A stretch of DNA of 52,975 bases from Muribaculaceae bacterium Zag1 (GTDB taxonomy: Bacteria > Bacteroidota > Bacteroidia > Bacteroidales > Muribaculaceae). The notes below the pieces were generated by a model that was not told the origin of the DNA, ran no database searches, and saw only the letters and a list, made by a program, of their open reading frames with translations. Where the stretch lies: the NCBI GenBank assembly GCA_002633115.1, contig NWBJ01000069.1:57385-110359 (forward strand), in the 5' to 3' direction. A program made the translations under genes and the position numbers. Below are positions 6,883-52,097 of this stretch, in pieces. How positions within the stretch are numbered: the first letter of the stretch is position 1; the number at the start of each line of letters is the position of its first letter.

Positions 6883-7668
6883 ATGAGACTTGTAATCGAA
6901 AAAGACTACGACGCAATGTCGCGCTGGGCTGCCGACTATGTGGCCGCTCGCATCAACGCCGCCAACCCTACCCCGGAGCATCCTTTCGTGCTCGGATGCC
7001 CCACCGGCAGTTCTCCACTGGGAATGTATCGCGCCCTGATTGACCTGTACAAGGAGGGTAAAGTATCGTTCAAGAATGTTGTGACATTCAACATGGATGA
7101 ATACTGTGGAATACCTGAGGACCATGAGCAGAGCTACCACACATTCATGTGGACCAACTTCTTCTCGCACATCGATATCAAGAAGGAAAATGTGAACTTC
7201 CTCGACGGCAACGCTGCCGACATCGAGGCTGAGTGCAAGCGTTACGAGGATAAGATCAAGAGCTACGGAGGCGTAGACCTCTTCATGGGCGGCGTGGGCC
7301 AGGACGGCCACATTGCCTTCAACGAGCCGGGCTCGTCGCTCGCTTCTCGCACTCGTCAGATGGCCCTCACCACTGACACCATCATCGCCAACTCGCGATT
7401 CTTCGGGGGCGACCTCAACGCAGTGCCCAAGACTGCCCTCACCGTGGGCGTAGGCACCGTGATGGATGCCCGCACCGTGTTATTGCTGGTCAACGGCCAC
7501 GCCAAATCGCGCGCCTTGTACCACGGCGTAGAGGGTGGCATCACCCAGATGTGGACCATCTCGGCCCTGCAGTTCCACCCCGATGCCATCATCGCTTGCG
7601 ACGAGGCTGCCTGCGATGACCTCAAGGTATCAACCTACCGCTACTACAAGGACATTGAACATAAGTAA
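6883..7668 (+). CDS. nagB: Glucosamine-6-phosphate deaminase
   Basis: This 261-residue cytoplasmic enzyme converts glucosamine-6-phosphate to fructose-6-phosphate and ammonia, the exit step of amino-sugar catabolism. Diagnostic motifs are [16 protein letters not shown] (phosphate binding), the catalytic aspartate in FNMDEYCGI, and [19 protein letters not shown] with the ring-opening histidine and its glutamate partner. The length is normal for a hexameric NagB. It is transcribed alone from the divergent promoter shared with the ThiS-like gene. Tandem GAGTTAT words begin at its stop codon. Confidence 0.97.
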
Positions 7669-7740
7669 TGAGTTATGAGTTATGAGTTATGAGTTATGAG
7701 TCCCCCGGATGGTTACTCATAACTCACAACTCATAACTAC
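7666..7740. repeat. GAGTTAT-word inverted array between nagB and DUF3108 gene
   Basis: Four and a half tandem 9-nt words (TGAGTTATG type) begin at the nagB stop codon (7666-7700). A short CCCCCGGATGG core follows, then three inverted words (ACTCATAACTCACAACTC and so on, 7715-7738). The whole can fold into one long imperfect hairpin. The same word reappears in one orientation at 45853-45892, directly against the amidase start codon. It may terminate nagB, but its word structure links it to the wider repeat set. Confidence 0.85.
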
Positions 7741-7750
7741 ATTAAACCTT

Positions 7751-7784
7751 TTTGGTCTGAAACACTCTAATGTTTCAGACCAAA
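7751..7784 (+). terminator. Perfect 14-bp hairpin just upstream of the DUF3108 start
   Basis: TTTGGTCTGAAACA (7751-7764) and TGTTTCAGACCAAA (7771-7784) are perfectly complementary around a 6-nt loop, followed by TTTTAAT. It ends 11 nt before the DUF3108 ATG. It could terminate nagB transcription or act as a leader hairpin that hides the next gene's start. The short distance to the ATG is unusual. Confidence 0.7.
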
Positions 7785-7795
7785 TTTTAATCGAA

Positions 7796-8545
7796 ATGAA
7801 GAAAATACTCATAGCCATAATGGCACTGGGAGCTACATTGTGGGCCAGCGCCTACAATTTTCCCGACGAGACTATCAGCTACAAGGTGATGTACAAATGG
7901 GGCCTGATTAACAAAAAAGCCGGCACCGTCGACATACATCTTAAGAACCACGACGACCGATACCAGTCGGTGCTGACTGGAGCCTCAGCCTCCTGGGCCG
8001 ACAAGTTTTTTAAAGTACGCGACACCCTCTACACCGAGATGTACAAGGAATCGTTGCAGCCACTGCGCTACGAGAAGATAGCCCACGAGGGCAACGATGA
8101 CAAGCACGACACCGTAATATTCAGTTACAACGGCAACACTGTCACTGGCCAGTGCACGCGCTTGGAGAAGCGCGACGGAAAGGTGCGCAAGGACGAGCAA
8201 CGCACACTCGAGGCCGAGGGCGAAACCCTCGACATGCTCTGCTCCTTTTACTACATGCGCAACCTGCCATTTGAGGACTGGAGCCCCAACCACAAAGTGA
8301 CAGTGAATATCTTCTCGGGCAAGCGCAAGGAGCTGCTCACAATCCAGTATCATGGCAGCGAAATGGTGGAATATGACAATCACAAATACGATTGTTACAA
8401 AATTACATTCATTTTCACCTCTGATGGCAAGGAAAAGACCAGCGATGACATGTATGCCTGGATCGACAAGACATCGCGGATACCCGTCAAACTGGAGGGA
8501 AAACTGCCGCTGGGCAGCATAAAATGCTTTTACATAACAGATTAA
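7796..8545 (+). CDS. DUF3108 domain-containing exported protein
   Basis: The ATG at 7796 (MKKILIAIMALGATLWASA) gives a clean signal peptide; an earlier in-frame start would place the protein across the hairpin and repeat. The mature part, about 230 residues, matches the DUF3108 pattern: YKVMYKWGLINKKAGTVDI at the start, a FYYMRNLPF segment mid-protein and MYAWIDKTSRIPVKLEGKLPLGSI at the end. This suggests a periplasmic or outer-membrane-facing beta-rich protein resembling LolA/LppX-type folds. The function is unknown. A terminator follows directly. Confidence 0.88.
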   Translation: MKKILIAIMALGATLWASAYNFPDETISYKVMYKWGLINKKAGTVDIHLKNHDDRYQSVLTGASASWADKFFKVRDTLYTEMYKESLQPLRYEKIAHEGNDDKHDTVIFSYNGNTVTGQCTRLEKRDGKVRKDEQRTLEAEGETLDMLCSFYYMRNLPFEDWSPNHKVTVNIFSGKRKELLTIQYHGSEMVEYDNHKYDCYKITFIFTSDGKEKTSDDMYAWIDKTSRIPVKLEGKLPLGSIKCFYITD

Positions 8546-8551
8546 GACCAA

Positions 8552-8612
8552 CAAAAAAGGCGACTCTCACGAGCCGCCTATTTTTCAACCTATGATTCAC
8601 TTATTGAATCCG
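8552..8612 (-). ncRNA. Candidate short RNA, minus strand
   Basis: On the minus strand TTG (8646-8644) is followed 20 nt later by TAACTTTGTA (8623-8614), a very good promoter. No ORF follows. The predicted transcript starts near 8610 with the hairpin GATTCA-ataag-TGAATC (8610-8594) and ends at the bidirectional terminator (8585-8558), giving an RNA of about 55-60 nt. It would be 3'-adjacent and tail-to-tail with the DUF3108 gene. This is inferred only from signals. Confidence 0.4.
8558..8585. terminator. Bidirectional terminator after the DUF3108 gene
   Basis: AGGCGACTC (8558-8566) pairs with GAGCCGCCT (8571-8579) with one mismatch and a TCAC loop. A-run and T-run flank both sides. It ends the DUF3108 transcript and, on minus, the possible short RNA that starts near 8610. 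Confidence 0.85.
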
Positions 8613-8750: not shown

Positions 8751-9071
8751 TCATTTCAAGATGTCGAAGCTATCGACATAAATTTCGGTGATGTGATGCT
8801 TGATTGTGTTACGGTCCTCCCATACTCGGGTACGGATTTTGCCCTCGACAAGCAGCCGAGTGCCCTTGCGGATGTATTTTTCAGCAATCTCGGCCGACTG
8901 GTCAAACATCACAATGTTGTGCCACTCGGTGCGCTCAGGGATTTCAGCTCCTGAGGCCGAGCGGCGTGCCCTCTCAGTGGTTGCGAGGGTGAATGTCGCC
9001 AGAGGGCGACTCTCTATGTAACGGATTTCGGGGTCGCGACCTACGTACCCCATCAGGATGGCTTTGTTCAA
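8751..9071 (-). CDS. ssb: Single-stranded DNA-binding protein
   Basis: This roughly 106-residue OB-fold protein binds ssDNA during replication and repair. The core reads NKAILMGYVGRDPEIRYIESRPLATFTLATTER, then ERTEWHNIVMFDQSAEIAEKYIRKGTRLLVEGKI, all characteristic of SSB. It ends at VDSFDILK and lacks the long acidic C-terminal tail. No ATG is found at the expected place. The codons before NKA are ATT (9074) and TTG (9071); family members usually begin MLNK, so the ATG seems to have become ATT where an ATGAAAA repeat abuts. The upstream ATG at 9146 would add a repeat-encoded extension. TTG is taken as start, with doubt. Confidence 0.85.
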   Translation of the reverse strand: MNKAILMGYVGRDPEIRYIESRPLATFTLATTERARRSASGAEIPERTEWHNIVMFDQSAEIAEKYIRKGTRLLVEGKIRTRVWEDRNTIKHHITEIYVDSFDILK

Positions 9072-9096
9072 AATGAAAAATGAAAAATGAAAAATA
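9072..9096. repeat. ATGAAAA repeat overlapping the ssb start region
   Basis: Three and a half tandem AAATGAAA-type words (AAATGAAAAATGAAAAATGA) run from directly next to the ssb first codon, occupying the ribosome-binding region of ssb on the minus strand. The same word recurs at 22461, 29392, 31029, 42793, 42845 and 44416. Confidence 0.8.
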
Positions 9097-9147: not shown

Positions 9148-9250
9148 ACAGATTAGGATTCCTAGGATGCCTAAGATTCCTAATCTTTATGGGCAGCCGG
9201 ATAGGAATCCTAGGCAGCCAAAGATTCCTAATCTGCTATCTCAGGAATCT
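9148..9250. repeat. AGATTCCTAATC-word repeat between ssb and the patatin gene
   Basis: The words AGATTAGGATTCCTAGG, AAGATTCCTAATCT (twice) and GGAATCCTAGGCAGCC alternate in direct and inverted orientation around a GCCGGATAGG core (9197-9206). The block runs through the last codons of the patatin gene (RFLR and its stop at 9236). It can form several alternative hairpins. Confidence 0.75.
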
Positions 9251-11660: not shown

Positions 11661-11745
11661 GACCATAAGGGCATAAGATACATAAGGCCATAAGGTCGGG
11701 GGTGTATTTAGCTTGTGTCCTTATGCATCTCATGTCCTTGCGGTC
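11661..11745. repeat. 34-nt-arm inverted repeat of the ACATAAGG family, copy 1
   Basis: The arms are 11661-11694 (starts GACCATAAGGGCATAAGA) and 11712-11745, with a 17-nt loop. They differ at about 7 of 34 positions, nearly all transitions. Each arm is made of two TAAGGNCATAAG words. The same 34-nt arm, with perfect complementarity, occurs at 47096-47172. Here it sits between divergent genes (patatin and surE), so it cannot be a terminator for either. Confidence 0.85.
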
Positions 11746-11772
11746 TTTAGGGTCTTTAGGGTCTTTAGGGTC
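11745..11772. repeat. GGGTCTTTA tandem repeat
   Basis: Three tandem copies of the 9-nt word GGGTCTTTA follow directly on the arm of the preceding inverted repeat and end about 100 nt before surE. The word GGTCTTTA also forms the end of that arm, so this looks like local expansion. Confidence 0.8.
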
Positions 11773-16552: not shown

Positions 16553-16653
16553 CTATTTGAAAGAACCCCTACGGGGTACCACTGCGTTAGCCCACTTTTG
16601 ATCTATTTGAAAGAACCCCACGTTAGCTCACTTTTGACTTTTGACTTTTGACT
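16553..16653. repeat. CTATTTGAAAGAACCCC direct repeat and TTTTGAC array
   Basis: CTATTTGAAAGAACCCC occurs at 16553-16569 and 16603-16619. Each copy is followed by a GTTAGCYCACTTTTGA segment. The second copy runs into three tandem TTTTGAC words (about 16630-16652), and the last word supplies the apparent TTG start codon of the next gene. Confidence 0.8.
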
Positions 16654-19053: not shown

Positions 19054-21054
19054 ATGACTACTGAAAAAGTGAAAGAACGCGAGCCGGAGTACGCGCCGGC
19101 TGAGCTCGAACCCGTCGACTTGCCAGAGAACGCGTTTCGCGAACTCGCGGCCGACGAGGAGTACCATCCCATAATGAATCCGGCGCACGACTATCCCGAG
19201 GTGACGCCGTATTCGGTGACTATGGGTTTGATTTTGGCCGTAATCTTCAGCGCGGCCGCTGCCTATCTGGGCCTCAAGGTGGGCCAAGTATTTGAGGCAG
19301 CCATCCCTATCGCCATCATCGCTGTGGGCCTGTCGGGCGCTTTGAAAAAGAACAAAGCCCTGGGCCAGAATGTGATTATCCAATCGATTGGCGCCTGCTC
19401 GGGCGTGATCGTGGCTGGTGCCATCTTCACCCTCCCGGCTCTGTACATCCTCCAGGCTTCGTATCCTGAGATTACTGTCAACTTCTTCCAGATTTTCCTC
19501 AGTTCGCTCTTCGGCGGTGTGCTGGGTATTCTGTTCTTCATTCCTTTCCGCAAGTATTTCGTAAAGGATATGCACGGCAAGTACCCCTTCCCTGAGGCTA
19601 CCGCTACCACTCAGGTGCTCTGCAGCGGTCAAAGCGCTGCCGCATCCTCTGGCGGTCAGGCCAAGCTGCTGGTAATCGCTTCGCTCATCGGTGGTATCTA
19701 CGACTACATCGTGGCTACCTTTGGTTGGTGGGCCGAGACTGTCACCACCACAGCTTATGCTTGGGGCGCATCGGTGGTTGAGAAGACCAAATTCTTGGTA
19801 TCTTGCAACACCTCGGCTGCTGTGCTTGGCCTGGGCTACATCATCGGCCTCAAGTATGCTTTTATCATCTTCTCTGGTTCAATCTTTGTGTGGTGGGTGC
19901 TTATCCCTCTGTTTGGCACCTATGGCGCGCCTGAGATTTCTGCTCTGTCGGCCCAAGGCATCTTCAGCAACTATGCCCGCATGATGGGCATCGGCGGTAT
20001 CGCTATGGCTGGCATCATCGGCATCGTCAAGTCGTGGCCCATTATCCAACAGGCAGTCGGTCTCGCTGGCCGCGAGTTCAAGGGCTCGGCAGGCAAGCAA
20101 GCCACTCTGCGTTGGCAGCGCGACATCTCGATGAAGTCGATCACCTATATGATTGCCATTGCTCTCGCGGCTGTGTTCATCTTCTTCTGGTTTGGCGTAA
20201 TCCATACTTTCTGGCAGGCTGTGATTGCTTGGTTTGTGGTAACAGTGATTGCTTTCCTCTTCACTACCGTGGCTGCCAATGCCATCGCTATCGTGGGCAC
20301 CAACCCAGTGAGCGGCATGACCCTGATGACTCTTATCATCGCTTCGGGCATCTTCGTAGCTATCGGTCTTAATGGCACCTCGGGCATCGTCACTTCGATG
20401 GTGCTGGGCGGTGTCGTTTGTACCGCGCTCTCTATGGCTGGCGGTTTTGTCACCGACCTCAAGATAGGATATTGGCTTGGCTCAACGCCTCGCAAGCAGG
20501 AGCAATGGAAATTCCTCGGCACTCTGGTATCGGCCGCTACCGTTGGCGGCGTAATCATGGTGCTCAACCAGGTCTACGGCTTCGGCCCTGATTCATCTCT
20601 CGCAGCGCCACAGGCAAATGCTATGGCCAAGGTGATCGAACCTATGATGACCGGCGGCGATACCCCCTGGACTCTCTATATCGTTGGCGCAGTGCTTGCC
20701 ATCATTCTCAACTGGCTTGGCGTACCGGCTCTGCCTTTCTGCCTCGGCATGTTCATTCCTCTGCAGCTCAACACTCCGCTGCTCGTGGGCGGTCTGGTAG
20801 CTTGGGCTGTGAATCGCAGCAGCAAGGATCCCGACATCGTTAAGGCTCGCAACGACCGCGGCACTCTCATCTCATCGGGTCTGATCGCTGGCGGCGCTCT
20901 GTTTGGCGTATTCTCGGCCATCACCATCATGTGTGGCAAGACTCCTCCATCCAACAATGACGAGTTTGTGCCTCAGATCCTGGGCCTGATTGCCTACGCA
21001 GCCATCATCGCCTACCTCTACATCGCCTCCTGCCGCACCAAATCCAACCGCTAA
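19054..21054 (+). CDS. Oligopeptide transporter, OPT family
   Basis: This 666-residue polytopic inner-membrane protein belongs to the OPT superfamily. After a charged N-terminal tail (about 1-50), many hydrophobic helices follow, including YSVTMGLILAVIFSAAAAYLGLKVGQ, which is characteristic of bacterial OPT transporters, and GKYPFPEATATTQVL, the OPT loop signature. These carriers take up oligopeptides or related metal chelates driven by protons. No signal for a specific substrate. The stop codon lies in the first arm of the next inverted repeat. Confidence 0.92.
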   Translation: MTTEKVKEREPEYAPAELEPVDLPENAFRELAADEEYHPIMNPAHDYPEVTPYSVTMGLILAVIFSAAAAYLGLKVGQVFEAAIPIAIIAVGLSGALKKNKALGQNVIIQSIGACSGVIVAGAIFTLPALYILQASYPEITVNFFQIFLSSLFGGVLGILFFIPFRKYFVKDMHGKYPFPEATATTQVLCSGQSAAASSGGQAKLLVIASLIGGIYDYIVATFGWWAETVTTTAYAWGASVVEKTKFLVSCNTSAAVLGLGYIIGLKYAFIIFSGSIFVWWVLIPLFGTYGAPEISALSAQGIFSNYARMMGIGGIAMAGIIGIVKSWPIIQQAVGLAGREFKGSAGKQATLRWQRDISMKSITYMIAIALAAVFIFFWFGVIHTFWQAVIAWFVVTVIAFLFTTVAANAIAIVGTNPVSGMTLMTLIIASGIFVAIGLNGTSGIVTSMVLGGVVCTALSMAGGFVTDLKIGYWLGSTPRKQEQWKFLGTLVSAATVGGVIMVLNQVYGFGPDSSLAAPQANAMAKVIEPMMTGGDTPWTLYIVGAVLAIILNWLGVPALPFCLGMFIPLQLNTPLLVGGLVAWAVNRSSKDPDIVKARNDRGTLISSGLIAGGALFGVFSAITIMCGKTPPSNNDEFVPQILGLIAYAAIIAYLYIASCRTKSNR

Positions 21055-21157
21055 AACGTAAGCACAAAAAACGTAAACACGAAAAACGTAAGCACAAAAA
21101 AACGTAAACACATAAGCTTTACGTTTTTCGTATTTACGTTTTTCGTGCTTACGTTTT
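21053..21157. repeat. ACGTAAGCAC-word long inverted repeat
   Basis: About 42-nt arms, each built of three AAAACGTAA(G/A)CAC words, face each other (left from 21053, right ending 21157), with a few mismatches and one indel. The left arm starts inside the OPT stop codon and the right arm ends 7 nt before the MATE start. Because the flanking genes are codirectional, it could attenuate read-through. The word is related to the ACATAAGG arms at 11661 and 47096. Confidence 0.88.
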
Positions 21158-22834: not shown

Positions 22835-23887
22835 TCAAATAAGATTAAGGTCGTTATAGACTTGTTCTATCGGTTGATTGAGAAGAGCGGAGGCTTTGGA
22901 GATAGAGATAATACCAGTAGCGAGAGCACAGAATACAAGGCGCTCAAAGCGACTCGATTTCTCGTCTCTATACCGAGAGCCCTCAACCAGCTCCCTGAAT
23001 TGTGGCAGAGCCTTTTTCTTCATACAGAAACCAGCATACCTATGCTCAGAGATGATACCGCAACATTTGGCTTTATACATCAGTGCGTCTATAGAAATGC
23101 CATATTGACACTGAAGGTCAATAAGTTCTTGCAGTGAGATGTCATGTCTACGCTCTCCAATTAGGGATTTGAACCTATCGCTGGATATGAGCATTTCACG
23201 GGCAAAAATGTTACAAAGGTGGTCTCTCTCCTTTGAGTCACTCTCTGGATCAAATTCTAATATCAAATACCCAAGTTCGCGAAGTACAGTGAAGCGCTTG
23301 CGCTCAGCGGTAAAATTGGAATTGAGTACGATGACGCGTAGGCTTTCTCCTACCATGGCGCTTAGAGCATCAATCATGGTTGGTGCTTCTATCTCTATCA
23401 CCTTGATGCAATTGTTTTCAAGAGTTTCTATTTCATTCGCAATGCCATTGTCACCAAGGCGCCATTCTTTTTTGAGGTTGGCAACAATAGACCCAATATC
23501 ATTATCCTCTCTGATATTCGCGTTGCGGATACCATTTACCATCTTAGATTCTATGCCACACAACTCCTCTATCTCCAGATAACATTCTAACTGGTCCCTT
23601 ACCATCTCCTTAATGGAGGCAAGGGGTTTTCCACTTAGCTTTACGTAACTATGAAATACTGTTTCTCCGATGCTTGGCCCTATTGGCCGCAAAAGTGAAT
23701 CAGGGGTTACTTCGAGAGCATTAGCCAAAAGAATCAAGGAGCGACTATCGGGCATCATTTGTCCCGCCTCATATTTATGAATAGACTGCTTGGTCAGAGC
23801 GTAGTCCAATCGCTTTACGAGTTCATCCATCGACAAACCGCGCATCACGCGAGCCTGCTTTAACCGTATGGGGAAAACTGTTTTCAT
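22835..23887 (-). CDS. XRE family regulator with degenerate ImmA/IrrE peptidase domain
   Basis: This 350-residue protein has an N-terminal helix-turn-helix (about 6-62; LKQARVMRGLSMDELVKRLD then LTKQSIHKYEAGQMMPDSRS). The C-terminal part follows the ImmA/IrrE layout, with ERKRFTVLRELGYLILEF around residue 205. In functional members this is HELGH, the zinc-binding HEXXH; here it reads RELGY (203-207), so both histidines are lost and peptidase activity is unlikely. It lies upstream of and divergent from the restriction-modification pair. A GTTTACAAA inverted repeat overlaps its own promoter, suggesting autoregulation. A control role for the R-M operon is inference. Confidence 0.88.
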   Translation of the reverse strand: MKTVFPIRLKQARVMRGLSMDELVKRLDYALTKQSIHKYEAGQMMPDSRSLILLANALEVTPDSLLRPIGPSIGETVFHSYVKLSGKPLASIKEMVRDQLECYLEIEELCGIESKMVNGIRNANIREDNDIGSIVANLKKEWRLGDNGIANEIETLENNCIKVIEIEAPTMIDALSAMVGESLRVIVLNSNFTAERKRFTVLRELGYLILEFDPESDSKERDHLCNIFAREMLISSDRFKSLIGERRHDISLQELIDLQCQYGISIDALMYKAKCCGIISEHRYAGFCMKKKALPQFRELVEGSRYRDEKSSRFERLVFCALATGIISISKASALLNQPIEQVYNDLNLI

Positions 23888-23902
23888 CTCTAAGACCTTT
23901 TG

Positions 23903-23939
23903 GTTTACAAAATTAGTTATAATTTCTCAATTTGTAAAC
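23903..23939 (-). promoter_or_regulatory. XRE regulator promoter overlapped by an inverted-repeat operator
   Basis: GTTTACAAA (23903-23911) and TTTGTAAAC (23931-23939) are perfect 9-bp inverted arms with 19 nt between. On the minus strand the -7 element TAATTTTGTA (23915-23906) overlaps one arm, and the -33 region falls in the other. Binding there would block RNA polymerase, an arrangement typical of self-repression. The regulator ATG follows about 18 nt later. Confidence 0.7.
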
Positions 23940-24068
23940 TCTAATTTCAAAATTTTTCTGTAGGACGTAAAGAGAGCCGGTGTCCTCAAACTCTAGACGT
24001 GCCCTCAAGGTATAAATAAGGAGCCTTGCAGTGAACTTCCTGCGCTGGGTGCAATTTGACGCGTTCAT
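23913..24068 (-). CDS. Possible 51-residue small protein upstream of the XRE gene
   Basis: An ATG at 24068 opens a 51-codon frame starting MNASNCTQRRKFTARLLIYT and ending FEIRVYKLRNYN, with the TAA stop lying in the -7 element of the XRE gene. It is basic and has no recognised domain. A good minus-strand promoter lies about 22 nt upstream (24122-24090). It may be a real leader peptide gene, a remnant, or the shadow of a structured leader RNA; the sequence around 23960-24060 also has short inverted words (for example CCTTGAGGGCAC). Low certainty. Confidence 0.35.
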   Translation of the reverse strand: MNASNCTQRRKFTARLLIYTLRARLEFEDTGSLYVLQKNFEIRVYKLRNYN

Positions 24069-24089
24069 ATTTGTCTGATTTTTGTTTTT

Positions 24090-24122
24090 TGCAAATTTAC
24101 ACCATATTCTTTAATAACAAAA
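24090..24122 (-). promoter_or_regulatory. Minus-strand promoter upstream of the small ORF
   Basis: TTTTG (24122-24118) is followed after 18 nt by TAAATTTGCA (24099-24090) on the minus strand. It would make a transcript through the 51-residue frame into the XRE gene, giving that gene a second, longer mRNA of about 200 nt leader. Confidence 0.65.
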
Positions 24123-24164
24123 TGGCCTTCACCCAGTTTGTTTCTAACTCCTACTTCCCACCCC

Positions 24165-24251
24165 TTAGTCCATTTTACATTCCCCGCCTAATGATGACGA
24201 TTTTTATGGACTAAATTAATCCATATTTGATTTTTTTATTGTAATTTTGTA
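24165..24251 (+). promoter_or_regulatory. R-M operon promoter with TTARTCCAT operators
   Basis: The -7 element TAATTTTGTA (24242-24251) precedes the endonuclease ATG by 21 nt. The segment ATGGACTAAATTAATCCAT (24206-24224) is a 19-bp near-perfect palindrome that overlaps the -33 region. A further TTAGTCCAT copy lies at 24165-24173. The three TTARTCCAT half-sites resemble, in layout, the C-boxes bound by restriction-modification control proteins. Confidence 0.6.
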
Positions 24252-24272
24252 CCGTAATTCTACCAATCAGAA

Positions 24273-25499
24273 ATGAATCAGGACAATCAACAACTCACCG
24301 CTGGGTACGACATTCTTTTGGCCCAAGACCAACCTCTTTCTCCCAAAGAAATGAGGGAGGTCATTATGGGTAAATTAGGGGCTCAGTGTAATTATACAGA
24401 AGTTGAAGGAAAGAAACGCATCATTTATCATAACGGCTCAAAAGATATAATCATTTTTGCAAAGGCTATTACATACCTTGGTAATCCACATCCTATCTTT
24501 AAAAAGAGGATTCAGATTCCTAAATATTGGATTGAAGATGCAGTCTCCCTATCCAAATTAGGTTATGATGTAAGATTCATAGGAGTATATCATTTTGAAG
24601 GTTTTATTATATTTGCTGACTTTGTCAAAGATTCCTACATTCAACATCAATGCAACAACTCCGCCGCCCATATCTACATTAACGATTTATACCAAGGCGA
24701 CCTTTATGATTATTTCTCCAAAATAGATCAAAATGGAAATGAAATAAGGACAATCTCTAATCGTAAGTTCGCTCAATACTTACAAGGAGAAATGGCAGAA
24801 AGTAATTTGTTCAAACTTTTTGCCCAGTTCAACTATGGATTCTGTTTTGGGGAATGGCTGACTGCTATAGATGCTATTCAAGAGATGCATCAAAAACACT
24901 GGTCGCAATGGCGCCAAGCCGAATGGGCCGGATGGTTCCTAGAGTATAGATTCAGTCATTTTACCGAAAAAGATGAAATCCATCCCTATATTCAATACAC
25001 GGCCCTAACACATAAAAGTTCTCACGATCCAGATGTTTTTGATTTTGATATCTGGTTCCCAGCCCACAGATTTTATGGGGATCTAAAAGCCAGTGATAAA
25101 TCTAAAAAAGAAACTCCAGGCAACGACCAGATCGCCTTTGTTGAATGTCTCAAGAAGTATGGGAAGTTTTGGTACGTCATCTACCAACACGAAACCATCA
25201 AAGATTCCGATAAAGACTTTGAAGCGACATTATTCCGTAATAAATATTTAAAAGAAATAGACAATGCCCCAGACTCATCTTTTGATCCAATGAGTTACCA
25301 TCAAAGGATGAAACATAGTGTCAAATTCACAGATATGTGTATTCTGGAGATTAATCGTATTAACCTCCATTCTATTCTTTCAGATTTTAATCAAGGACGT
25401 CAACCCGATGGGAACCCACGGAATCCTAAATTCAAAATCAACAAGAAGGACATAGACAATTTTGTAATTTATCGTTATCACCATAAAGATGAGCAATAA
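24273..25499 (+). CDS. Candidate type II restriction endonuclease
   Basis: I do not recognise the family of this 408-residue protein by name. The gene overlaps the start of the C5 methyltransferase gene by 11 nt (ATGAGCAATAA), a layout typical of R-M operons. A candidate PD-(D/E)XK core is visible: FDFDIWFPAHRFYGDLKAS, with D257/D259, D270 and K272. There is no signal peptide or membrane segment. The region N-terminal to the core (about 1-240) would hold the recognition part. It is AT-rich like its neighbours, suggesting horizontal acquisition. Target sequence cannot be read from the protein. The call rests on context plus the motif. Confidence 0.7.
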   Translation: MNQDNQQLTAGYDILLAQDQPLSPKEMREVIMGKLGAQCNYTEVEGKKRIIYHNGSKDIIIFAKAITYLGNPHPIFKKRIQIPKYWIEDAVSLSKLGYDVRFIGVYHFEGFIIFADFVKDSYIQHQCNNSAAHIYINDLYQGDLYDYFSKIDQNGNEIRTISNRKFAQYLQGEMAESNLFKLFAQFNYGFCFGEWLTAIDAIQEMHQKHWSQWRQAEWAGWFLEYRFSHFTEKDEIHPYIQYTALTHKSSHDPDVFDFDIWFPAHRFYGDLKASDKSKKETPGNDQIAFVECLKKYGKFWYVIYQHETIKDSDKDFEATLFRNKYLKEIDNAPDSSFDPMSYHQRMKHSVKFTDMCILEINRINLHSILSDFNQGRQPDGNPRNPKFKINKKDIDNFVIYRYHHKDEQ

Positions 25500-27153
25500 A
25501 AAATTCCGTTTCGTTGACCTATTCTGTGGAATTGGCGGATTCCATCAGGCGATGACGAAATTTGGCGGTGAATGTGTTTTTGCTGCGGAGATAGATCCAG
25601 ACTGTATTGATACCTACTATAAGAATTATGGTATAGATGCAGCCCATGACATGACACAAATAGATGTTGAACGAGTGCCTGAGCATGAGGTGCTCTGCGC
25701 TGGCTTCCCCTGTCAGGCTTTTTCCAAAGCCGGTAAACAGGCCGGAATCAACGATACACGTGGTACACTCTTTTTTGAGATAGAAAGATTGCTGCGCTAT
25801 CATCATACCCCATTTATACTTCTCGAGAATGTACGCAATTTGGTAAGTCATGATCAAGGGCGCACATGGCAAATTATAACCGATGTCCTTCATGATATCG
25901 GCTATCGCCTAACCACTGAGCCCTTGATTCTAAGTCCTCATCAATTTGGTGTCCCTCAACTACGCGAAAGGGTCTATATAGTAGGAGTATATGACCCAGA
26001 GAACGTTAAGACACCCTTGGATATTTCGTTCTCGAATCTTCTTTCCAAGACTGATCTAAGCATATACTCTGTTTTGGAAAATGAGAAACCAGAGGGGCAA
26101 GATTCTACCATTAGCGACCAAGAATTGTTAGTGCTTCAGGCTTGGGATGAGTTTTACCAAGGGATTAAGGAAAAGGTTATCGGCTTTCCAATCAATGTGG
26201 AGTATTTTAATTGGACTGACGATATTTCTTATTTGCCAGAATGGAAGCAACAACATATTGTAAAGAACCGTCAACTCTATGCCAATAATCGTGAGTTCAT
26301 TAACAAATGGCTCGAGGATTGGGATGGTTTAAAATCTTTCACCCCTACTCAGCGTAAACTCGAATGGCAATGCGGGACAGGGGTAAATACTATTTTTGAG
26401 GGCATAATTCAAATGCGCCCCTCAGGAATAAGAGTTAAACTCCCCAATGTTTTCCCAGCATTGGTAGCCATGGTACAGATACCTATTATTGGGAGATACA
26501 AACGGCGTTTAACTGTGAGAGAGTGTGCCAGACTTCAAAGTTTTCCAGACTCTTTCCGCCCTTGCGCCAATAGACATCAAGCACTAAAGCAGTTTGGCAA
26601 TTCGGTCAACGTGAATGTCCTTGAGGCTATATTCACTCAACTTGACTCCAAGTATGGGCCTATTCGTCTAAAGCCAAATAGATTGGAGATTTCAAGTAAA
26701 ACGGCTTATCGTGCTGCTCCTCTGGCAGTACAGTTGTCTCTGTTTGAAAGCCAAGTCATTTATCAATCAAGGAAAGATTGTACTTTCCTAATTGCTACTT
26801 GTCGACAGGGGAATAAGCAATGGATACTCGACAACATGCTCTATAATTACCCTATTACTGAAGACGAGATAGCATCTCATCCAGAACTTATGGGGGCTAA
26901 ACGTCTTATGCTTCTGCATCGCAAAAAGTTCTTAGGTTTCTTTGAGGTATCCAAAGCAGAGATTGTTGACCTACAATGGCTCAAGGACCATAAATATCCT
27001 GTAAATAAACGTCATAAGGCCAACTCCTACCTCCTCTATCACCTTAGGGCTGAGGAGCCTCCATTGCCCCAAGATATCCGAAGAGAAGATTTCATTATAT
27101 TCTTCGGTAAAGGAGTAAAAAACGAAACAGAGGAAAAAGAGACCTCAAATTGA
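25489..27153 (+). CDS. DNA (cytosine-5)-methyltransferase with C-terminal extension
   Basis: This 554-residue protein has the ordered C5-MTase motifs: I FVDLFCGIGGF (8-18), IV GFPCQAFSKAG with catalytic Cys75, VI LLENVRNLV, VIII QLRERVYIVGV, IX RECARLQSFPDSF and X QFGNSVNVNV (around 367). These end near residue 385. A further 165 residues follow (about 390-554), including MGAKRLMLLHRKKFLGFFEV and a basic NKRHKANSYLLYHL segment, not part of the standard enzyme. I cannot assign this domain. It protects host DNA from the overlapping endonuclease and would be made first or together with it. Confidence 0.93.
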   Translation: MSNKKFRFVDLFCGIGGFHQAMTKFGGECVFAAEIDPDCIDTYYKNYGIDAAHDMTQIDVERVPEHEVLCAGFPCQAFSKAGKQAGINDTRGTLFFEIERLLRYHHTPFILLENVRNLVSHDQGRTWQIITDVLHDIGYRLTTEPLILSPHQFGVPQLRERVYIVGVYDPENVKTPLDISFSNLLSKTDLSIYSVLENEKPEGQDSTISDQELLVLQAWDEFYQGIKEKVIGFPINVEYFNWTDDISYLPEWKQQHIVKNRQLYANNREFINKWLEDWDGLKSFTPTQRKLEWQCGTGVNTIFEGIIQMRPSGIRVKLPNVFPALVAMVQIPIIGRYKRRLTVRECARLQSFPDSFRPCANRHQALKQFGNSVNVNVLEAIFTQLDSKYGPIRLKPNRLEISSKTAYRAAPLAVQLSLFESQVIYQSRKDCTFLIATCRQGNKQWILDNMLYNYPITEDEIASHPELMGAKRLMLLHRKKFLGFFEVSKAEIVDLQWLKDHKYPVNKRHKANSYLLYHLRAEEPPLPQDIRREDFIIFFGKGVKNETEEKETSN

Positions 27154-28046: not shown

Positions 28047-28049
28047 AAA

Positions 28050-29388: not shown

Positions 29389-29391
29389 GAA

Positions 29392-29480
29392 TGAAAAATG
29401 AAAAATGAAGAATGAAAAATGAAAAATTGAGCCTCAGCCGGATGGGCTGAGGCTCAATTTTTCAATCTTCATTTTTCATT
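29392..29480. repeat. ATGAAAA inverted array with an 18-bp perfect stem
   Basis: Four ATGAA(A/G)A-type words lead into a perfect stem AAAAATTGAGCCTCAGCC (29422-29439) around a GGATG loop, whose partner is 29445-29462. Inverted TTTTTCATT words follow to 29480. The core contains CCGGATGG. It lies after the intact Rpn gene and forms the right edge of the AT-rich island. Confidence 0.9.
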
Positions 29481-29624
29481 TCTTGAGGGTGGAGAAGTAG
29501 AGGGAGTGGTCGCGGAGGTCGTTGCGGAGCTGGGAGGAGAATTAAGATAGAATATTGGAGGAGTAGGCAAAACATCTTAGAGGGGTCAGAGGTTATAATA
29601 GTGTAACTATTTATTTTGCGAAAT

Positions 29625-31028: not shown

Positions 31029-31155
31029 AATGAAGAATGAAAAATGAAAAATGAAAAATTCCACTGGATCGGAGAGAATGAAAAAATGAAGAATGAAAAA
31101 TGAAAAATGAAAAATTCCACTGAATCGGAGAAAATGAACAATGAAAAATGAAAAA
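31029..31155. repeat. ATGAAAA array and tandem 50-nt-class repeat between TolC and adaptor genes
   Basis: Two copies of a unit made of ATGAAGAATGAAAAATGAAAAATGAAAAATT plus TCCACTGRATCGGAGA... lie in tandem (from about 31030 and 31085). A third partial ATGAAAA run ends 11 nt before the adaptor ATG. All lie in the gap between two genes of one operon. Confidence 0.85.
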
Positions 31156-31165
31156 TATTGGCACT

Positions 31166-39315: not shown

Positions 39316-39350
39316 TTTTTGTTATCAATTATAAATTTTGTAATTTTGCA
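39316..39350 (+). promoter_or_regulatory. Promoter of the cobalamin riboswitch / btuB transcript
   Basis: TTTTTG (39316-39321), 19 nt, then TAATTTTGCA (39341-39350). The riboswitch starts right after it. Confidence 0.88.
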
Positions 39351-39354
39351 GCGC

Positions 39355-39548
39355 AATTGGTGGCCGCGAGGCCTCAATAGGGAACGAGGTGAGAATCCCC
39401 GACAGTCCCGCTGCGGTATTTCTGCCATGCGCTCGCGATGGGCGCAACCTCAAATGCAAAGCCACTGATTCCGAGTGAGGGAGTTGGGAAGGCGCATTCA
39501 TAGAGGGAAGGCGATAAGTCCGAAGACCTGCCATTGCGTGATACGATG
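39355..39548 (+). promoter_or_regulatory. Cobalamin riboswitch
   Basis: The conserved B12 elements occur in order: GGGAACGAGGTGAGAATCCC then CGACAGTCCCGCTGC (39380-39414), the GCCACTG core (39461-39467), GGGAAGGCGC (39486-39495) and the B12-box AAGTCCGAAGACCTGCC (39515-39531). It lies 15 nt before the btuB-like gene and would repress it, by blocking translation start or transcription, when adenosylcobalamin is plentiful. The exact outer bounds are approximate. Confidence 0.95.
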
Positions 39549-41711: not shown

Positions 41712-42797
41712 ATGAAAAAAAGTATCCTCTATGGCGCATTAATCGCGCTCTCAGCTGCAGCAGTCACCGCCTGCAGCGACGATGATGACGACTACACCCC
41801 CGTCGATCCCGAGCAGCCTACCGAATCGGTAGCCGGATTCTACGTGCTCAACCAGGGCAACATGGGCTACCAAATCGAGGGCGACCTAAGCTATGGCGAC
41901 TACTCGACCGGAGCCGCCACTCAGGACCTGTTCCAGAACGCCAACGGCCGCAGCCTCGGCAACACCCCGCAGACTGCCATCGTATATGGCAACCACATGT
42001 ACATCGGCGTGTATGAGTCAAACACCATCGAAATCGTCAATCCCAAGACCTACGCGGTCGAGAAGCAAATCAGCCTCGCCAACGAGACTGGCCAGAATCC
42101 TCGCTCGATGGTAGCCACCGAGGGCAAGGTCTACATCTCGATGTACAACGGCTATGTGTGCCGTCTTGACACCGCCTCGCTCTCGATCGATGCCACTGTC
42201 AAGGTTGGGCCCAATCCCGAGATTATGGCTATCAGCAACCGCTACCTGTATGTGCCTAACAGCGACGGCATGAACTGGGAGGTGGGCTACGGCACAACTG
42301 CCAGCAAGATCGACCTCAACAACTTCCAGGTGGTCAAGACCTTTGAGGTAGGCCTCAACCCCTCCCGCTTTATCTCAAATGCCAATGGCGACCTGTTTGT
42401 GCTCTGCATGGGCAACTATGGCGACGTAGCCGCTACCGTCTACAAGGTGCGCAGCGATGATTCGCTGGTCGAGGTGACCGAAGCCACCAATGTGGCCATG
42501 GATGGCAACTATCTGTATATGTGCAATGCGCCTTACGGCATCGACAAGGTGGTTTACTACCGCTATGACACCACCAGCGACACCCTCGTGGGCTGGGAGC
42601 CCTCAAAGGATGTTGACAGCATCGCTGGCATGGCAGTTGATGCAACCGACGGCTACGTGCTCATCTCGTCGTACTCGCTCGATGGCGGCTATGCCAGCTA
42701 CTCGCTGCCTGGCTATGTCAACCAGTACGACCTCGAGGGCAACTTCATCCGCACCTACAGCGCCGGTGTCGGTCCCTGCTGGATCTTCTTTAAATGA
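41712..42797 (+). CDS. btuG: BtuG-like cobalamin-binding beta-propeller lipoprotein (DUF5074/YncE type)
   Basis: This 361-residue lipoprotein has a lipobox AVTAC with Cys21 followed by acidic residues (SDDDDD), typical of Bacteroidetes surface-export signals. The rest shows repeated propeller blades: GNHMYIGVYESNTIEIVNPKT, ISNRYLYVPNSDG, NGDLFVLCMGNYGDV, GNYLYMCNAPYGID and others, in total about seven. BtuG proteins bind cobalamin at the cell surface with very high affinity and hand it to BtuB. Its position after btuB under the riboswitch supports the same role. The assignment is by fold and neighbourhood. Confidence 0.82.
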   Translation: MKKSILYGALIALSAAAVTACSDDDDDYTPVDPEQPTESVAGFYVLNQGNMGYQIEGDLSYGDYSTGAATQDLFQNANGRSLGNTPQTAIVYGNHMYIGVYESNTIEIVNPKTYAVEKQISLANETGQNPRSMVATEGKVYISMYNGYVCRLDTASLSIDATVKVGPNPEIMAISNRYLYVPNSDGMNWEVGYGTTASKIDLNNFQVVKTFEVGLNPSRFISNANGDLFVLCMGNYGDVAATVYKVRSDDSLVEVTEATNVAMDGNYLYMCNAPYGIDKVVYYRYDTTSDTLVGWEPSKDVDSIAGMAVDATDGYVLISSYSLDGGYASYSLPGYVNQYDLEGNFIRTYSAGVGPCWIFFK

Positions 42798-42870
42798 AAA
42801 ATGAAAAATGGCCATCCGAGATAACACCCGGATGGCCATTATTCATTATTCATTATTCATTTTTCATTTA
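42793..42870. repeat. ATGAAAA inverted array with CCATCCG/CGGATGG stem
   Basis: AAATGAAAAATGAAAAATG (42793-42811) leads to the stem ATGGCCATCCG (42808-42818)/CGGATGGCCAT (42829-42839), then ATTATTCATTATTC and TTTTTCATTT (42840-42870). It starts in the last codons of btuG and ends at the stop of the convergent MFS gene. It can serve as terminator for both. Confidence 0.9.
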
Positions 42871-44404: not shown

Positions 44405-44440
44405 ATATTATCAATTTTTCACTTTTCATTTTTCATTACT
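44405..44440. repeat. TTTTTCATTTTTCATT word run
   Basis: Inverted ATGAAAA words (TTTTTCACTTTTCATTTTTCATTA) end at the stop codon of the YggS gene on minus. They run between that stop and the 5' side of the MFS gene. No partner arm is nearby. Confidence 0.7.
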
Positions 44441-45620: not shown

Positions 45621-45739
45621 AGAAATTTTGAGCAATCACGGCAATTTTTCTTTTGAAAAAATGTTATTACACTCATTTTCAGCGAACATTTGCAATTCTA
45701 CGCCGTTTTTCAAATAAAAACCACAAGGAATCTTTGGCA

Positions 45740-45831
45740 CCACGGATTACACGGATTACACGGATACCATCCGGATACGTATTCCAGGGTACCATGGACT
45801 CCCCTCAAAAATCCGTGTAATCTGTGGTTTT
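45740..45831. repeat. ACGGATTAC-word inverted repeat with CATCCGGAT core
   Basis: ACCACGGATTACACGGATT (45740-45758) and AATCCGTGTAATCTGTGGT (45813-45831) are complementary with one mismatch. Another GGATTACACGGAT copy follows the left arm. The middle has ACCATCCGGATAC. It lies between divergent genes (DUF4494 and amidase), so it is not their terminator. Confidence 0.85.
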
Positions 45832-45852: not shown

Positions 45853-45892
45853 CACAACTCATAACTCACAACTCTTAACTCATAACTCATAA
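45853..45892. repeat. ACTCATA word run directly upstream of the amidase start
   Basis: About four ACTCATAACTCACAACT-type words fill the 40 nt before the ATG at 45892. The last word, ACTCATAATG, contains the start codon. They occupy the ribosome-binding region. Confidence 0.8.
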
Positions 45893-47095: not shown

Positions 47096-47172
47096 GACCG
47101 TAAGGACATAAGAAACGTAAGGACATAAGGCTCAAAATCTTATGTCCTTACGTTTCTTATGTCCTTACGGTC
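47096..47172. repeat. 34-nt-arm inverted repeat of the ACATAAGG family, copy 2
   Basis: The arms 47096-47129 (starts GACCGTAAGGACATAAGA) and 47139-47172 are perfectly complementary over 34 nt with a 9-nt loop. Each arm has two GTAAGGACATAAG words. The right arm overlaps the stop of the minus-strand phosphoesterase gene. It lies between convergent genes, so it could be a shared terminator here. Copy 1 at 11661 has homologous arms between divergent genes. Confidence 0.92.
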
Positions 47173-49055: not shown

Positions 49056-49197
49056 AACCACGAAGATAAACTTAACCACGAAGGTCTCTAATTTTGTACT
49101 CCGGAGTACAAAATTAGAGACCTTAGTGAAATCCTTCGAGACCTTCGTGGTTTCTATTCATTAGACCTTCGTGGTTTCTATTCATTAAGGTGGTTTT
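49056..49197. repeat. Composite palindrome and CCACGAAGG/CCTTCGTGG repeats
   Basis: A perfect 44-bp palindrome (49081-49124; starts AAGGTCTCTAATTTTG) has TAATTTTGTA in each arm. It is flanked on the left by two TTAACCACGAAG words and on the right by two tandem 24-nt units that start ACCTTCGTGGTTTC (49141-49164, 49165-49188). The left AACCACGAAGGTCT also pairs with the right AGACCTTCGTGGTT. No ORF. Confidence 0.9.
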
Positions 49198-50496: not shown

Positions 50497-50546
50497 GATG
50501 CCATCAAAAGAAACTATTCAAAAATCCCTTATATGAGGTATTTACA

Positions 50547-50654
50547 GTGCGTAGCACGAGGCTTGTCTGTTAACCCCACATGGAGTGCTAAGCACGGAAT
50601 GTGGGGTATCGGGACATTCCTCCCTTTTCTAAGAGTGCGTAGCACGGCTCTCAA
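50547..50654. repeat. GTGCGTAGCACG repeat between the fimbrillin genes
   Basis: GTGCGTAGCACG occurs at about 50549 and 50636, with the relative GTGCTAAGCACG between them. CCCCACAT and ATGTGGGG form an inverted pair around the middle copy. Each word is itself a short palindrome. Together they could form several hairpins. Confidence 0.75.
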
Positions 50655-50672
50655 GAACTAATCCTAAATAAC

Positions 50673-51833
50673 ATGAAAAGATATAGCATTTACATATTCA
50701 CCACTGCCTTTGCCTTGGCCAGCTGCTCAGGAGGCGATGACGAGCCAAAGAGCCAAGTCGCCACCTCGCCACAGATACTGATAGGCACTGGCTCGAGCAG
50801 CATCGGCTGGTCAGCCGTGGCCACCAGCCGCGTTGAACACCCAGACATATCCACCGTTATGCCCACCACCATGGGCGTGTGGGGGTATATTAGCGGCACC
50901 ACGGTATTTGAAAACCAAAAGATGTTTTATTTGGATAGCCTAAAAGATGGTGATCCAATCACGAAGGCTGAATGGGATAATTATTCCCCAAATAAATGGC
51001 CTTACAAACCTACTAAGGAATGGGGCCCCAGTACCGCCTACCAATTTGCCGCATACGCTCCCTATCTTGACCCTAGTGGAGAAAGAAAGGCAGAATTGCT
51101 AAATTCTGAAGGCGATGCTGCCGCGATGGGCACTATCTCCCAACTGCGTTGGAGCCACATTCCTCGCAGCGGAGCCACTGACTATATGTTTGGCACCTCG
51201 ATAGTCAACTATACCAGCAAAGCGACTACAGGTAACCCCGAGCAGCAGGTGACCCTCCGCCATATCGGCACGCGCCTTAGATTCAATTTCTTGATGGGAG
51301 AGGAATTCCTCGAGCTGCGTCGCTTGCACCTCAAGGAGGTTTCTATCGAGACCCCCAACGGGGCACTCTATACCGTGACCGTAAACTATGACTCTGATGG
51401 CAATGCCTCGACACCTATCTGGGAGGCTGAAACCACCACCAAAGATAATACGTGGGAGAATCTAATCCATGAGACCAACACAGACGATGGCTATCTCTGG
51501 CTGACAAACTCTTACCAGCCATTTGGCAGTTGCTACGTTTATCCAGGCCAAAGCATGGAGACCCTAAATGTGAAGGTAACTTATGATGTCTACGACCTCA
51601 GCACGCTGAGTGACTTCGAGTCTGGGAAATCCGATATTCCCGGCCAGCTGCTGCGCGAGAATGACACTGCCACCAACGTGGTCTGGCTCAAGCTGATTGA
51701 CAATACCCAGGTTGGCGATCGTGTGCTCGAGGCTGGGAAATATTTCGATGTGATGATCCGCATCGAGCCAGCGTTCATATATGTGCTTTCCGACAACGAC
51801 CCAACAGCGGATGGGTATATAATAATAGAATAG
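50673..51833 (+). CDS. Fimbrillin family lipoprotein B
   Basis: This 386-residue protein has the lipobox LASCSGGDDE after MKRYSIYIFTTAFA. The N-terminal domain has SRVEHPDISTVMPTTMGVWGYIS, YQFAAYAPYLDPSG, and TLRHIGTRLRFNFLMGEEF, the fimbrillin-type core with the invariant H-x-x-T/S-K/R region. The C-terminal domain closes with GKYFDVMIRIEPAFIYVLS. It follows fimbrillin A and likely forms part of the same fimbria, as an accessory or anchor subunit. The size is near normal. The relation is by pattern, not by high identity that I can verify. Confidence 0.85.
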   Translation: MKRYSIYIFTTAFALASCSGGDDEPKSQVATSPQILIGTGSSSIGWSAVATSRVEHPDISTVMPTTMGVWGYISGTTVFENQKMFYLDSLKDGDPITKAEWDNYSPNKWPYKPTKEWGPSTAYQFAAYAPYLDPSGERKAELLNSEGDAAAMGTISQLRWSHIPRSGATDYMFGTSIVNYTSKATTGNPEQQVTLRHIGTRLRFNFLMGEEFLELRRLHLKEVSIETPNGALYTVTVNYDSDGNASTPIWEAETTTKDNTWENLIHETNTDDGYLWLTNSYQPFGSCYVYPGQSMETLNVKVTYDVYDLSTLSDFESGKSDIPGQLLRENDTATNVVWLKLIDNTQVGDRVLEAGKYFDVMIRIEPAFIYVLSDNDPTADGYIIIE

Positions 51834-51859
51834 GCCCCCCAGCCCCCGCAGCGGGGGAG
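51834..51859. repeat. C-rich repeat, short inverted relative
   Basis: CCCCCGCAGCGGGGG (51843-51857) is the same hairpin core as the CCGCTGCGGGGG of the repeat at 1-47, here directly after the fimbrillin B stop and in the opposite orientation. Confidence 0.7.
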
Positions 51860-51869
51860 TTGCCATCCG

Positions 51870-52097
51870 GATGCGCCGCGTCAGCCACCTTATCACTTAT
51901 CCCTTATAGTTTATCCTTACCGTGAGGATGCGCTGCGTTAGCCACCCTATCACTTATCCCTTATAGTTTATCCTTACCGTGAGGATGCGCCGCGTCAGCC
52001 ACCTTATCACTTATCCCTTATAGTTTATCCTTACCGTGAGGATGCGCTGCGTTAGCCACCTTATCACTTATCACTTACACTTTATCCTTAGTATGAT
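51870..52097. repeat. Four 57-bp tandem repeats, alternating A-B-A-B
   Basis: Four 57-bp units start at 51870, 51927, 51984 and 52041, each beginning GATGCGCYGCGTYAGCCACC and ending TATCCTTAC-type. Units 1 and 3 have GCGCCGCGTCAGCC, units 2 and 4 GCGCTGCGTTAGCC, so the array looks like a doubled 114-bp dimer. Each unit contains TTATCACTTATCCCTTATAG-type words. The last, altered unit overlaps the ATG of the next gene. Confidence 0.93.

What the first reader, a model, noticed from the sequence alone, without database searches (positions are those of the whole stretch)
7666..52097. A grammar of short-word intergenic arrays across the window
Many gaps contain arrays of one 7-9 nt word, different from gap to gap: GAGTTATGA (7666, inverted at 7715; 45853), ATGAAAA (9072, 29392, 31029, 42793, 44405), ACGTAAGCAC (21053), ACATAAGG (11661, 47096), TTTTGAC (16630), GGGTCTTTA (11745), ACGGATTAC (45740), CCACGAAGG (49056), TTATCACTTATCCC (51870). 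Most occur as inverted pairs and many touch the stop or start codon next to them. This is a shared architecture with variable words, which I do not know as a described element class.
Basis: partly seen in the sequence, partly recalled or inferred. Interest (0 to 1): 0.8.

Follow-up and report, generated by a model that had tools for sequence, protein, structure and literature searches.

The report
Gene-less hairpin elements with word arms
The short repeated words between genes look like empty copies of two families of tiny insertions that, when complete, hold one small gene between mirrored word arrays, and that are spread over many bacterial phyla and probably archaea.

Summary
All 15 listed arrays exist at the stated places; 8 of 15 are inverted pairs, so "most" is overstated. 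One sister species shares the commonest word array; the 35 other same-genus genomes searched lack it. Slippage alone does not explain the arrays: the same words, as inverted arms, bracket one of two small genes. Four-helix-bundle genes (PF05635/TIGR02436, the 23S rRNA intervening-sequence protein family) sit between arms of 7-nt words (20 of 28 loci); GxxExxY genes (PF13366/TIGR04256, nuclease-like) sit between arms of 8-10-nt words (39 of 52). Word length predicts the gene (period 7/14: 27 of 31 against 0 of 41, plasmid test included). Six of the finding's nine words flank such a gene in this genome or its sister. At two gaps the sisters carry different insertions between 93-95% identical flanks; at one of them two relatives have only 2-9 bases. 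By record titles, one 26-base array occurs in eleven bacterial phyla and in archaeal records. Best reading: gene-less copies of two families of small mobile stem-loop elements that land between stop and start codons. Mobility is inferred from comparison; that the enclosed protein drives it is untested. My searches found no printed description.

The parts
7664..7744 (.). 7-nt word (AGTTATG) inverted pair, arms 7664-7701 and 7715-7744; overlaps the stop codon of the gene at 6883-7668
   Evidence: (fold z -9.4); same word brackets a four-helix-bundle gene at G000:C23 (L287)
9070..9095 (.). 7-nt word AATGAAA, single arm, next to the ssb gene
   Evidence: no partner; present in sister with one substitution
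9154..9230 (.).
   Evidence: (z -5.9)
11661..11745 (.). 8-nt word ACATAAGG inverted pair; sister keeps only the right arm
   Evidence: (z -6.5)
11742..11772 (.). 9-nt word GGGTCTTTA, single array; absent in sister
16621..16653 (+). 7-nt word TTTTGAC arm with linker CGTTAGC-CAC, matching a stretch beside the gene of the four-helix-bundle element L288
   Evidence: (33 columns, 1 mismatch), position; does not fold
21053..21157 (.). ACGTAAGCAC word inverted pair; contains the stop codon of the gene at 19054-21054; same word brackets a GxxExxY gene at G000:C70 (L194)
   Evidence: (z -10.0)
29390..29481 (.). 7-nt word ATGAAAA inverted pair around a GC-rich hairpin
   Evidence: (z -10.5)
31029..31156 (+). 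7-nt word ATGAAAA, three same-orientation arrays in a 56-bp repeat; about one unit fewer in sister
   Evidence: does not fold
42792..42869 (.). 7-nt word ATGAAAA/ATGAATA inverted pair filling the whole gap between two convergent stop codons
   Evidence: (z -7.5)
44412..44440 (-). 7-nt word ATGAAAA single arm at a stop codon; three more words in sister
   Evidence: does not fold
45739..45828 (.). 9-nt word CACGGATTA inverted pair; gap wholly different in sister
   Evidence: (z -5.4)
45856..45892 (-). 7-nt word AGTTATG single arm running into the start codon at 45892
   Evidence: does not fold
47096..47172 (.). 8-nt word ACATAAGG near-perfect inverted pair in a convergent gap; sister has a different, larger sequence there
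   Evidence: (z -16.4)
49056..49187 (.). 9-nt word CCACGAAGG inverted pair with inner hairpin; same word brackets a GxxExxY gene in sister (L197)
   Evidence: (z -8.0)
51869..52092 (+). 57-bp repeat x 3.9 with linker GCGTTAGCC and 7-nt word TTATCAC; 51931-51975 matches the right arm of the four-helix-bundle element at G000:C94 (L286)
   Evidence: (46 columns); folds weakly (z -1.8)

Best explanation
The arrays are gene-less, partly decayed copies of two families of small stem-loop insertion elements. A complete element is about 0.5 kb: a left arm of tandem short words, one small gene, and a right arm of the same word inverted. With 7-nt words the gene is a four-helix-bundle protein (PF05635); with 8-10-nt words it is a GxxExxY protein of the PD-(D/E)XK nuclease group. 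Elements land between the stop codon of one gene and the start codon of the next. In RNA the arms form a long hairpin that RNase III could cut, as it cuts the related rRNA intervening sequences, which would make insertion into an operon tolerable (inferred). Words drift but arms keep pairing, probably because slippage changes copy number and one arm is copied from the other (inferred). The enclosed protein most likely acts on arm DNA or RNA to help copying, for its own element and in trans for empty ones (inferred, untested). Shown: architecture, word-length rule, spread over phyla, presence/absence between relatives.
For: Inverted flanks (local alignment score >=30): GxxExxY 39 of 52 loci, left/right flanks of different loci 68 of 2652; four-helix 20 of 28, mismatched 11 of 756; ordinary genes 2 of 165. 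Arm period: four-helix 7 or 14 in 17 of 20, others 6, 8, 9; GxxExxY 8-10 in 37 of 39, weak 2, never 7. Test with criterion written down before fetching on plasmids: four-helix 11 of 12 bracketed (mismatched 14 of 132, as several share words), period 7/14 in 10 of 11; GxxExxY 4 of 8 (mismatched 1 of 56), periods 8-10 in these 4. Pooled, two weak ones left out, Fisher p 7e-16 (loci not all independent). Words of the finding around such genes in G000/G006: GAGTTATGA, ATGAAAA, TTTTGAC, TTATCAC, ACGTAAGCAC, CCACGAAGG. Presence/absence: L046 1802-2350 is a four-helix element; sister G006 has about 78 bp of another word, G017 and G027 have 2-9 bp between stop and start. In another gap G000 and G006 carry different GxxExxY elements (proteins 45% identical, arms different) between 95% identical flanks. 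Two window arrays share non-word linker with full elements. 48 of 104 loci of other organisms have the inverted partner word within 300 bp, reversed-word control 0 of 104. D, E and K of the nuclease motif invariant in 16 of 16 aligned GxxExxY.
Against: No insertion event was caught: target duplications were not searched, and I did not see one nearly identical element at two places of one genome (seven loci compared). 13 of 52 and 8 of 28 loci, and 4 of 8 and 1 of 12 on plasmids, are not bracketed at the threshold. 7 of 15 window sites have one arm only, and 5 of 15 folded stretches do not fold better than shuffles. Starting from arrays instead of genes, only 1 of 23 long-core inverted pairs held a cargo gene; in the 11 spans that I translated the others look by eye like ordinary genes between neighbouring gaps with the same word. 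G000 has only 3 GxxExxY and 7 PF05635 matches, 5 over the cut-off, but hundreds of arrays. The two window arrays of ATGAAAA type tested show only the word in common with a full element. Core motif CCATCCGGATGG is enriched near arrays, but CATCCGG/CCGGATG is seen in only 16 of 100 array gaps (3 of 154 others).
Confidence: 0.62

Rival explanations
1. Slipped-strand simple repeats: heptamer-biased polymerase slippage makes arrays anywhere non-coding, with no mobile element; small genes in gaps are chance passengers.
For: Copy-number differences between sisters at 3609, 31029 and 44405; heptamer excess in bacteria is known and was ascribed to slippage (PMC4679880, introduction read).
Against: Arms are inverted, matched in word, and bracket two specific genes far above controls; same 26-mer across phyla; presence/absence of whole insertions. 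Slippage does explain length change within arms.
Confidence: 0.15
2. Host terminators or RNA-stability hairpins kept by selection at gene ends.
For: 9 of 15 window stretches fold far better than shuffles (z -5 to -16); arrays lie nearer to stops than random placement gives.
Against: 5 of 15 window stretches do not fold better than shuffles and one only weakly; arrays occur in divergent gaps and the convergent excess was not reproduced; the commonest array is absent from 35 of 36 same-genus genomes (some incomplete) and words are replaced between sisters. Acquired terminator function is quite possible.
Confidence: 0.12
3. REP-like sequences moved by Y1 (RAYT/TnpA-REP) transposases.
For: G000 has 5 and G006 2 Y1 matches; one G006 Y1 gene sits between inverted copies of a dispersed element that is also in the window at about 50545-50655.
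Against: By eye none of 7 Y1 loci has word-array arms: one has the separate GTGCGTAGCACG element, two have other inverted flanks, four are under threshold; Y1 genes also occur in relatives without the commonest array.
Confidence: 0.06
4. Reverse-transcriptase-driven elements, since PF05635 resembles Avd of diversity-generating retroelements.
For: PF05635/Avd resemblance (PMC10053308, passages read).
Against: No RVT_1 match in 14 of 21 genomes, among them G006 and several with cargo genes; G000 has three weak ones.
Confidence: 0.05

Closest known systems
23S rRNA intervening sequences (IVS) with an S23 ORF
   Same: Same protein family (PF05635/TIGR02436) encoded inside a stem-loop; called a selfish element, cut out by RNase III (PMC4990558, abstract and passages read).
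   Different: The elements here lie between protein genes, not in rRNA; arms are tandem 7-nt words; most copies lack the gene; a second, unrelated cargo (GxxExxY) exists.
Cyanobacterial STRR heptamers (recalled) and TAACTGA repeats (MacGregor 2015, PMC4679880, introduction and passages read)
   Same: Intergenic 7-nt tandem words, near start or stop codons, in Cyanobacteria and Bacteroidetes.
   Different: Described there as direct repeats with a proposed translational role; no cargo gene or inverted-arm element in the passages read. Here heptamer arms bracket four-helix genes on Nostoc, Anabaena and Calothrix plasmids.
GGGAATC / GGGGATT heptamers of Xanthomonas and Nostoc (PMC4692102, passages read)
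   Same: Heptamers, some inverted, many intergenic.
   Different: Studied as G-quadruplex formers; no enclosed gene reported in those passages.
REP/REPIN with RAYT (abstract starts in the listing, and recalled)
   Same: Abundant non-coding hairpins plus a rare single-domain protein gene between copies.
   Different: Other proteins; REP is defined by sequence, these arms by word length and pairing.

Membership tests
23S rRNA IVS | inserted in a 23S rRNA helix | tested here: not met
   no rRNA match in the window; the cargo loci that I read lie between protein genes
23S rRNA IVS | stem-loop enclosing a PF05635/TIGR02436 gene | tested here: met
   for complete elements: 20 of 28 loci, TIGR02436 E 2.3e-28 or better in 3 of 3; the window copies lack the gene
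23S rRNA IVS | excision by RNase III | not testable with these tools
   needs RNA
STRR / LSSR heptamers | tandem 7-nt units, intergenic | tested here: met
   7 is the commonest period of non-coding arrays in both samples; the 8-10-nt class does not fit
REP/RAYT | RAYT (Y1) gene associated with the repeat | tested here: not met
   0 of 7 Y1 loci with word arms
MITE | terminal inverted repeats shared with a transposase-coding element | tested here: inconclusive
   arms shared with gene-bearing elements, but the gene is not a known transposase
MITE | target-site duplication | not tested
   empty-site sequences printed, no systematic search
PD-(D/E)XK nucleases (GxxExxY) | D...ExK catalytic residues | tested here: met
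   invariant in 16 of 16 aligned; fold model failed, pLDDT 40.6
Diversity-generating retroelement | reverse transcriptase | tested here: not met
   no match in 14 of 21 genomes

The most novel reading that the evidence does not exclude
A universal, undescribed class of mobile elements whose ends are not a fixed sequence but a grammar: any word will do, if it has the right length for the cargo protein and is mirrored. Four-helix-bundle proteins read 7-nt repeats and GxxExxY nucleases read 8-10-nt repeats, moving cognate gene-less hairpins into stop-start junctions over bacteria and archaea. The scattered heptamer repeats of cyanobacteria, Beggiatoa and Bacteroidetes, and the rRNA intervening sequences, would all be its traces.
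Probability: 0.35. Interest if true: 0.95.

Novelty: new variant of a known kind. Interest (0 to 1): 0.85.

Why it matters
It would give origin and agent to repeats that have been reported without either (heptamers, TAACTGA), give two widespread protein families of unknown function a setting and a testable job, and explain why identical word arrays appear in unrelated phyla. It also warns that 'intergenic tandem repeats', odd protein C-termini and assembly breaks can be element ends. The word-length rule is a sharp, cheap prediction for any genome.

Tried and rejected
Convergent-gap (terminator) preference: strong in my selected stretches, gone in the contig-start sample; dropped. Fold-back duplication of the upstream gene end, seen at L046 about 1768-1835: not general (array gaps 4 of 107, others 2 of 137 at score 24; the other high scorers were arrays running into genes). 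Reverse test from arrays to cargo: 1 of 23, not specific. Reverse transcriptase and Y1 transposase as drivers: see rivals. Shared core: only CCATCCGGATGG-related 8-mers stood out. Structure of a GxxExxY protein: useless model. PDB sequence search: four-helix 2rld E 5e-34, GxxExxY no credible hit. Viral contigs hold the four-unit ATGAAAA array in 6 stretches only, not followed. The two PDDEXK_2 genes in the window are not bracketed. Counts contain one duplicate locus and wrong offsets for a few minus-strand loci at contig ends; I replaced them, which drops 3 duplicate and 5 contig-edge loci and 3 without a model hit. One search used 80 of the 104 loci; one search repeats it on all 104.
Full report
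Observation. The 15 listed arrays are present. Array density is 499 per Mb in the window plus 20 stretches (many chosen near AATGAAAA hits), 359 per Mb in 259 kb of contig starts picked without looking, 45 per Mb in a Markov shuffle, 96 per Mb in 62.5 kb of four relatives. Among non-coding arrays period 7 is commonest, then 9, 8 and 14. Eight of 15 listed sites are inverted pairs; 9 of 15 lie within 5 nt of a called stop or start codon.

Host and relatives. The window is G000:C69:57385-110359 of a 4.46-Mb genome. No call names it; from gene content I take it for a Bacteroidales. AATGAAAAATGAAAAATGA occurs 129 times there and 96 times in G006, a same-genus genome of 4.1 Mb, mostly 89-96% identical over aligned stretches of the window (two stretches 73-79%); 0 times in the other 35 same-genus genomes, which have 1.9-2.9 Mb and are 71-99% complete; and once or twice in two of 24 more distant genomes.

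Sister gaps. Of 18 window gaps sent to alignment, 15 had joint anchors (part of its printout, within gap 29392, was cut). Some differ mainly in copy number (3609, 31029, 44405). In 11661 the sister keeps one arm. In 45740 and 47096 the gap holds quite different sequence between stretches that are 90-96% identical.

Other organisms. These name Bacteroidota, Verrucomicrobiota, Planctomycetota, Desulfobacterota (Desulfococcaceae), Chloroflexota, Acidobacteria, Spirochaetes, Bacillota (Clostridium, Symbiobacteriaceae), Chlamydiota, Pseudomonadota (Azospirillum, Magnetovibrio), Poribacteria and archaea (Methanolobus, Nanoarchaeota, an unnamed archaeon). Most are metagenome bins, so single assignments may be wrong, but isolates are among them (grouping into phyla is mine). 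48 of 104 have an inverted partner within 300 bp, reversed-word control 0 of 104. In the unnamed archaeal bin (L131) the array lies 24 bp behind the stop of a GxxExxY gene, with no mirrored arm seen in front; the two GxxExxY loci tested from that genome are not bracketed (L216, L234).

Cargo. From memory I suspected GxxExxY and four-helix-bundle genes near such words, and tested it. Loci were those the tools returned: for PF13366, 26 of the 28 matches in same-genus and same-order relatives and 30 of 61 in genomes behind; for PF05635, 30 of 63 matches plus two more of G000. Left flank against reverse complement of right flank (350 bp) scored 30 or more in 39 of 52 GxxExxY and 20 of 28 four-helix loci; flanks of different loci 68 of 2652 and 11 of 756; ordinary genes 2 of 165. 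Several loci under threshold also show words by eye. The arm period separates the two: 8, 9 or 10 in 37 of 39 (2 weak, none 7) and 7 or 14 in 17 of 20. I then wrote the criterion in the notebook before fetching 21 plasmid loci (all 8 GxxExxY hits; the 13 of 19 four-helix hits that cover at least 80% of the query): 4 of 8 and, after one duplicate, 11 of 12 bracketed, against 1 of 56 and 14 of 132 mismatched pairs; periods as predicted in 4 of 4 and 10 of 11. Some sit inside gene rows that look like operons: fabD-GxxExxY-fabG, cas6-four-helix-cas4 twice, and a four-helix gene between two ribonucleotide reductase genes. Pooled, period 7/14 goes with four-helix genes in 27 of 31 and with GxxExxY in 0 of 41, two weak ones left out; orthologous or near-related loci are included, so the p value is not exact.

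Link to the window. In G000 or G006, four-helix genes sit between GAGTTATGA (L287), AGTCAAA (L288, L289), ATGAAAA (L290), GGATAAA/GTGATAA (L286), AGTAATA (L285) and GTTTTTG (L246) arms; GxxExxY genes between ACGTAAGCAC (L194) and CCACGAAGG (L197) arms. That is six of the finding's nine words in these two genomes. ACATAAGG-like and ACACGGATT-like arms surround GxxExxY genes in related or other genomes (L190, L196, L236); GGGTCTTTA was not met around a cargo gene. Beyond the word, the arrays at 16621-16653 and 51931-51975 share linkers CGTTAGC-CAC and GCGTTAGCC with full elements; for the GAGTTATGA and ATGAAAA arrays tested only the word region matched. By eye, six of the seven four-helix elements of G000/G006 begin at the upstream stop codon (in L246 an inverted copy of the gene end lies between) and all seven end within about 10 nt of the next start codon.

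Insertion. L046 1802-2350 (four-helix element) is matched in G006 by about 78 bp of another word, with flanks 93-94% identical, and in G017 and G027 by 9 and 2 bp between stop and start. Another gap (crcB and nth by eye, no call names them) carries an ACGTAAGCAC GxxExxY element in G000 and an ACCACAAGGACATAAAACC one in G006; their proteins are 45% identical while flanks are 95% identical. So gaps are reused by different elements. Whether by fresh insertion or by replacement of an older copy cannot be told.

Mechanism. GxxExxY keeps D66, E76, K78 in 16 of 16 aligned sequences, so nuclease activity is likely; cruciform or hairpin arms would be a natural substrate (inferred). The four-helix family includes rRNA intervening-sequence proteins, whose stem-loops RNase III removes (PMC4990558), and resembles Avd (PMC10053308). 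A reverse transcriptase seems not to be needed. How words change while arms stay matched is open; slippage plus arm-to-arm copying is my guess.

Literature. Searches for the word letters (0 papers), GxxExxY (2 papers; the one whose passage I read, PMC8934634 is on reverse transcriptases; the other seen in the listing only), family accessions (2 papers, one read in passages, the other listed only), heptamers, IVS and four-helix terms (4 papers; 449 and 459 papers, only 12 and 15 listed) and REP/RAYT showed me no paper tying these genes to word arrays. Only open-licence PubMed Central text was searched.

Noticed in passing
window 50545-50655: About 110-bp dispersed element with GTGCGTAGCACG hairpins, in over 30 places in sister G006, where inverted copies flank a Y1 transposase gene (L209): an ordinary-looking REP/RAYT family, distinct from the word arrays.
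   Followed up: partly
L046 1768-1835: The last ~30 bp of a gene are repeated as an inverted copy right after its stop codon, beside a four-helix element: a fold-back-like duplication.
   Followed up: partly
window 22835-29388: Stretch with an HTH/M78 protein, MTaX1 protein, C5 DNA methylase and two PDDEXK_2 transposase-like genes; may be a defence or mobile island.
   Followed up: no
window 39341-39548: Cobalamin riboswitch upstream of a gene with a TonB-receptor plug domain.
   Followed up: no
L322, L323 (Anabaena and Pseudanabaena plasmids): Four-helix-bundle genes with heptamer arms between cas6 and cas4 in two cyanobacteria; could be mistaken for a CRISPR accessory gene.
   Followed up: no
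G000 and G006: The two genomes rich in the ATGAAAA array have 4.5 and 4.1 Mb while the other 35 same-genus genomes seen have 1.9-2.9 Mb.
   Followed up: no
L046 7516, L056 18572, L058 12559: Arrays run into called genes and supply their last codons, giving odd C-termini.
   Followed up: no
window 1-45 and 3114-3170: Other dispersed repeats hitting many G006 contigs.
   Followed up: no
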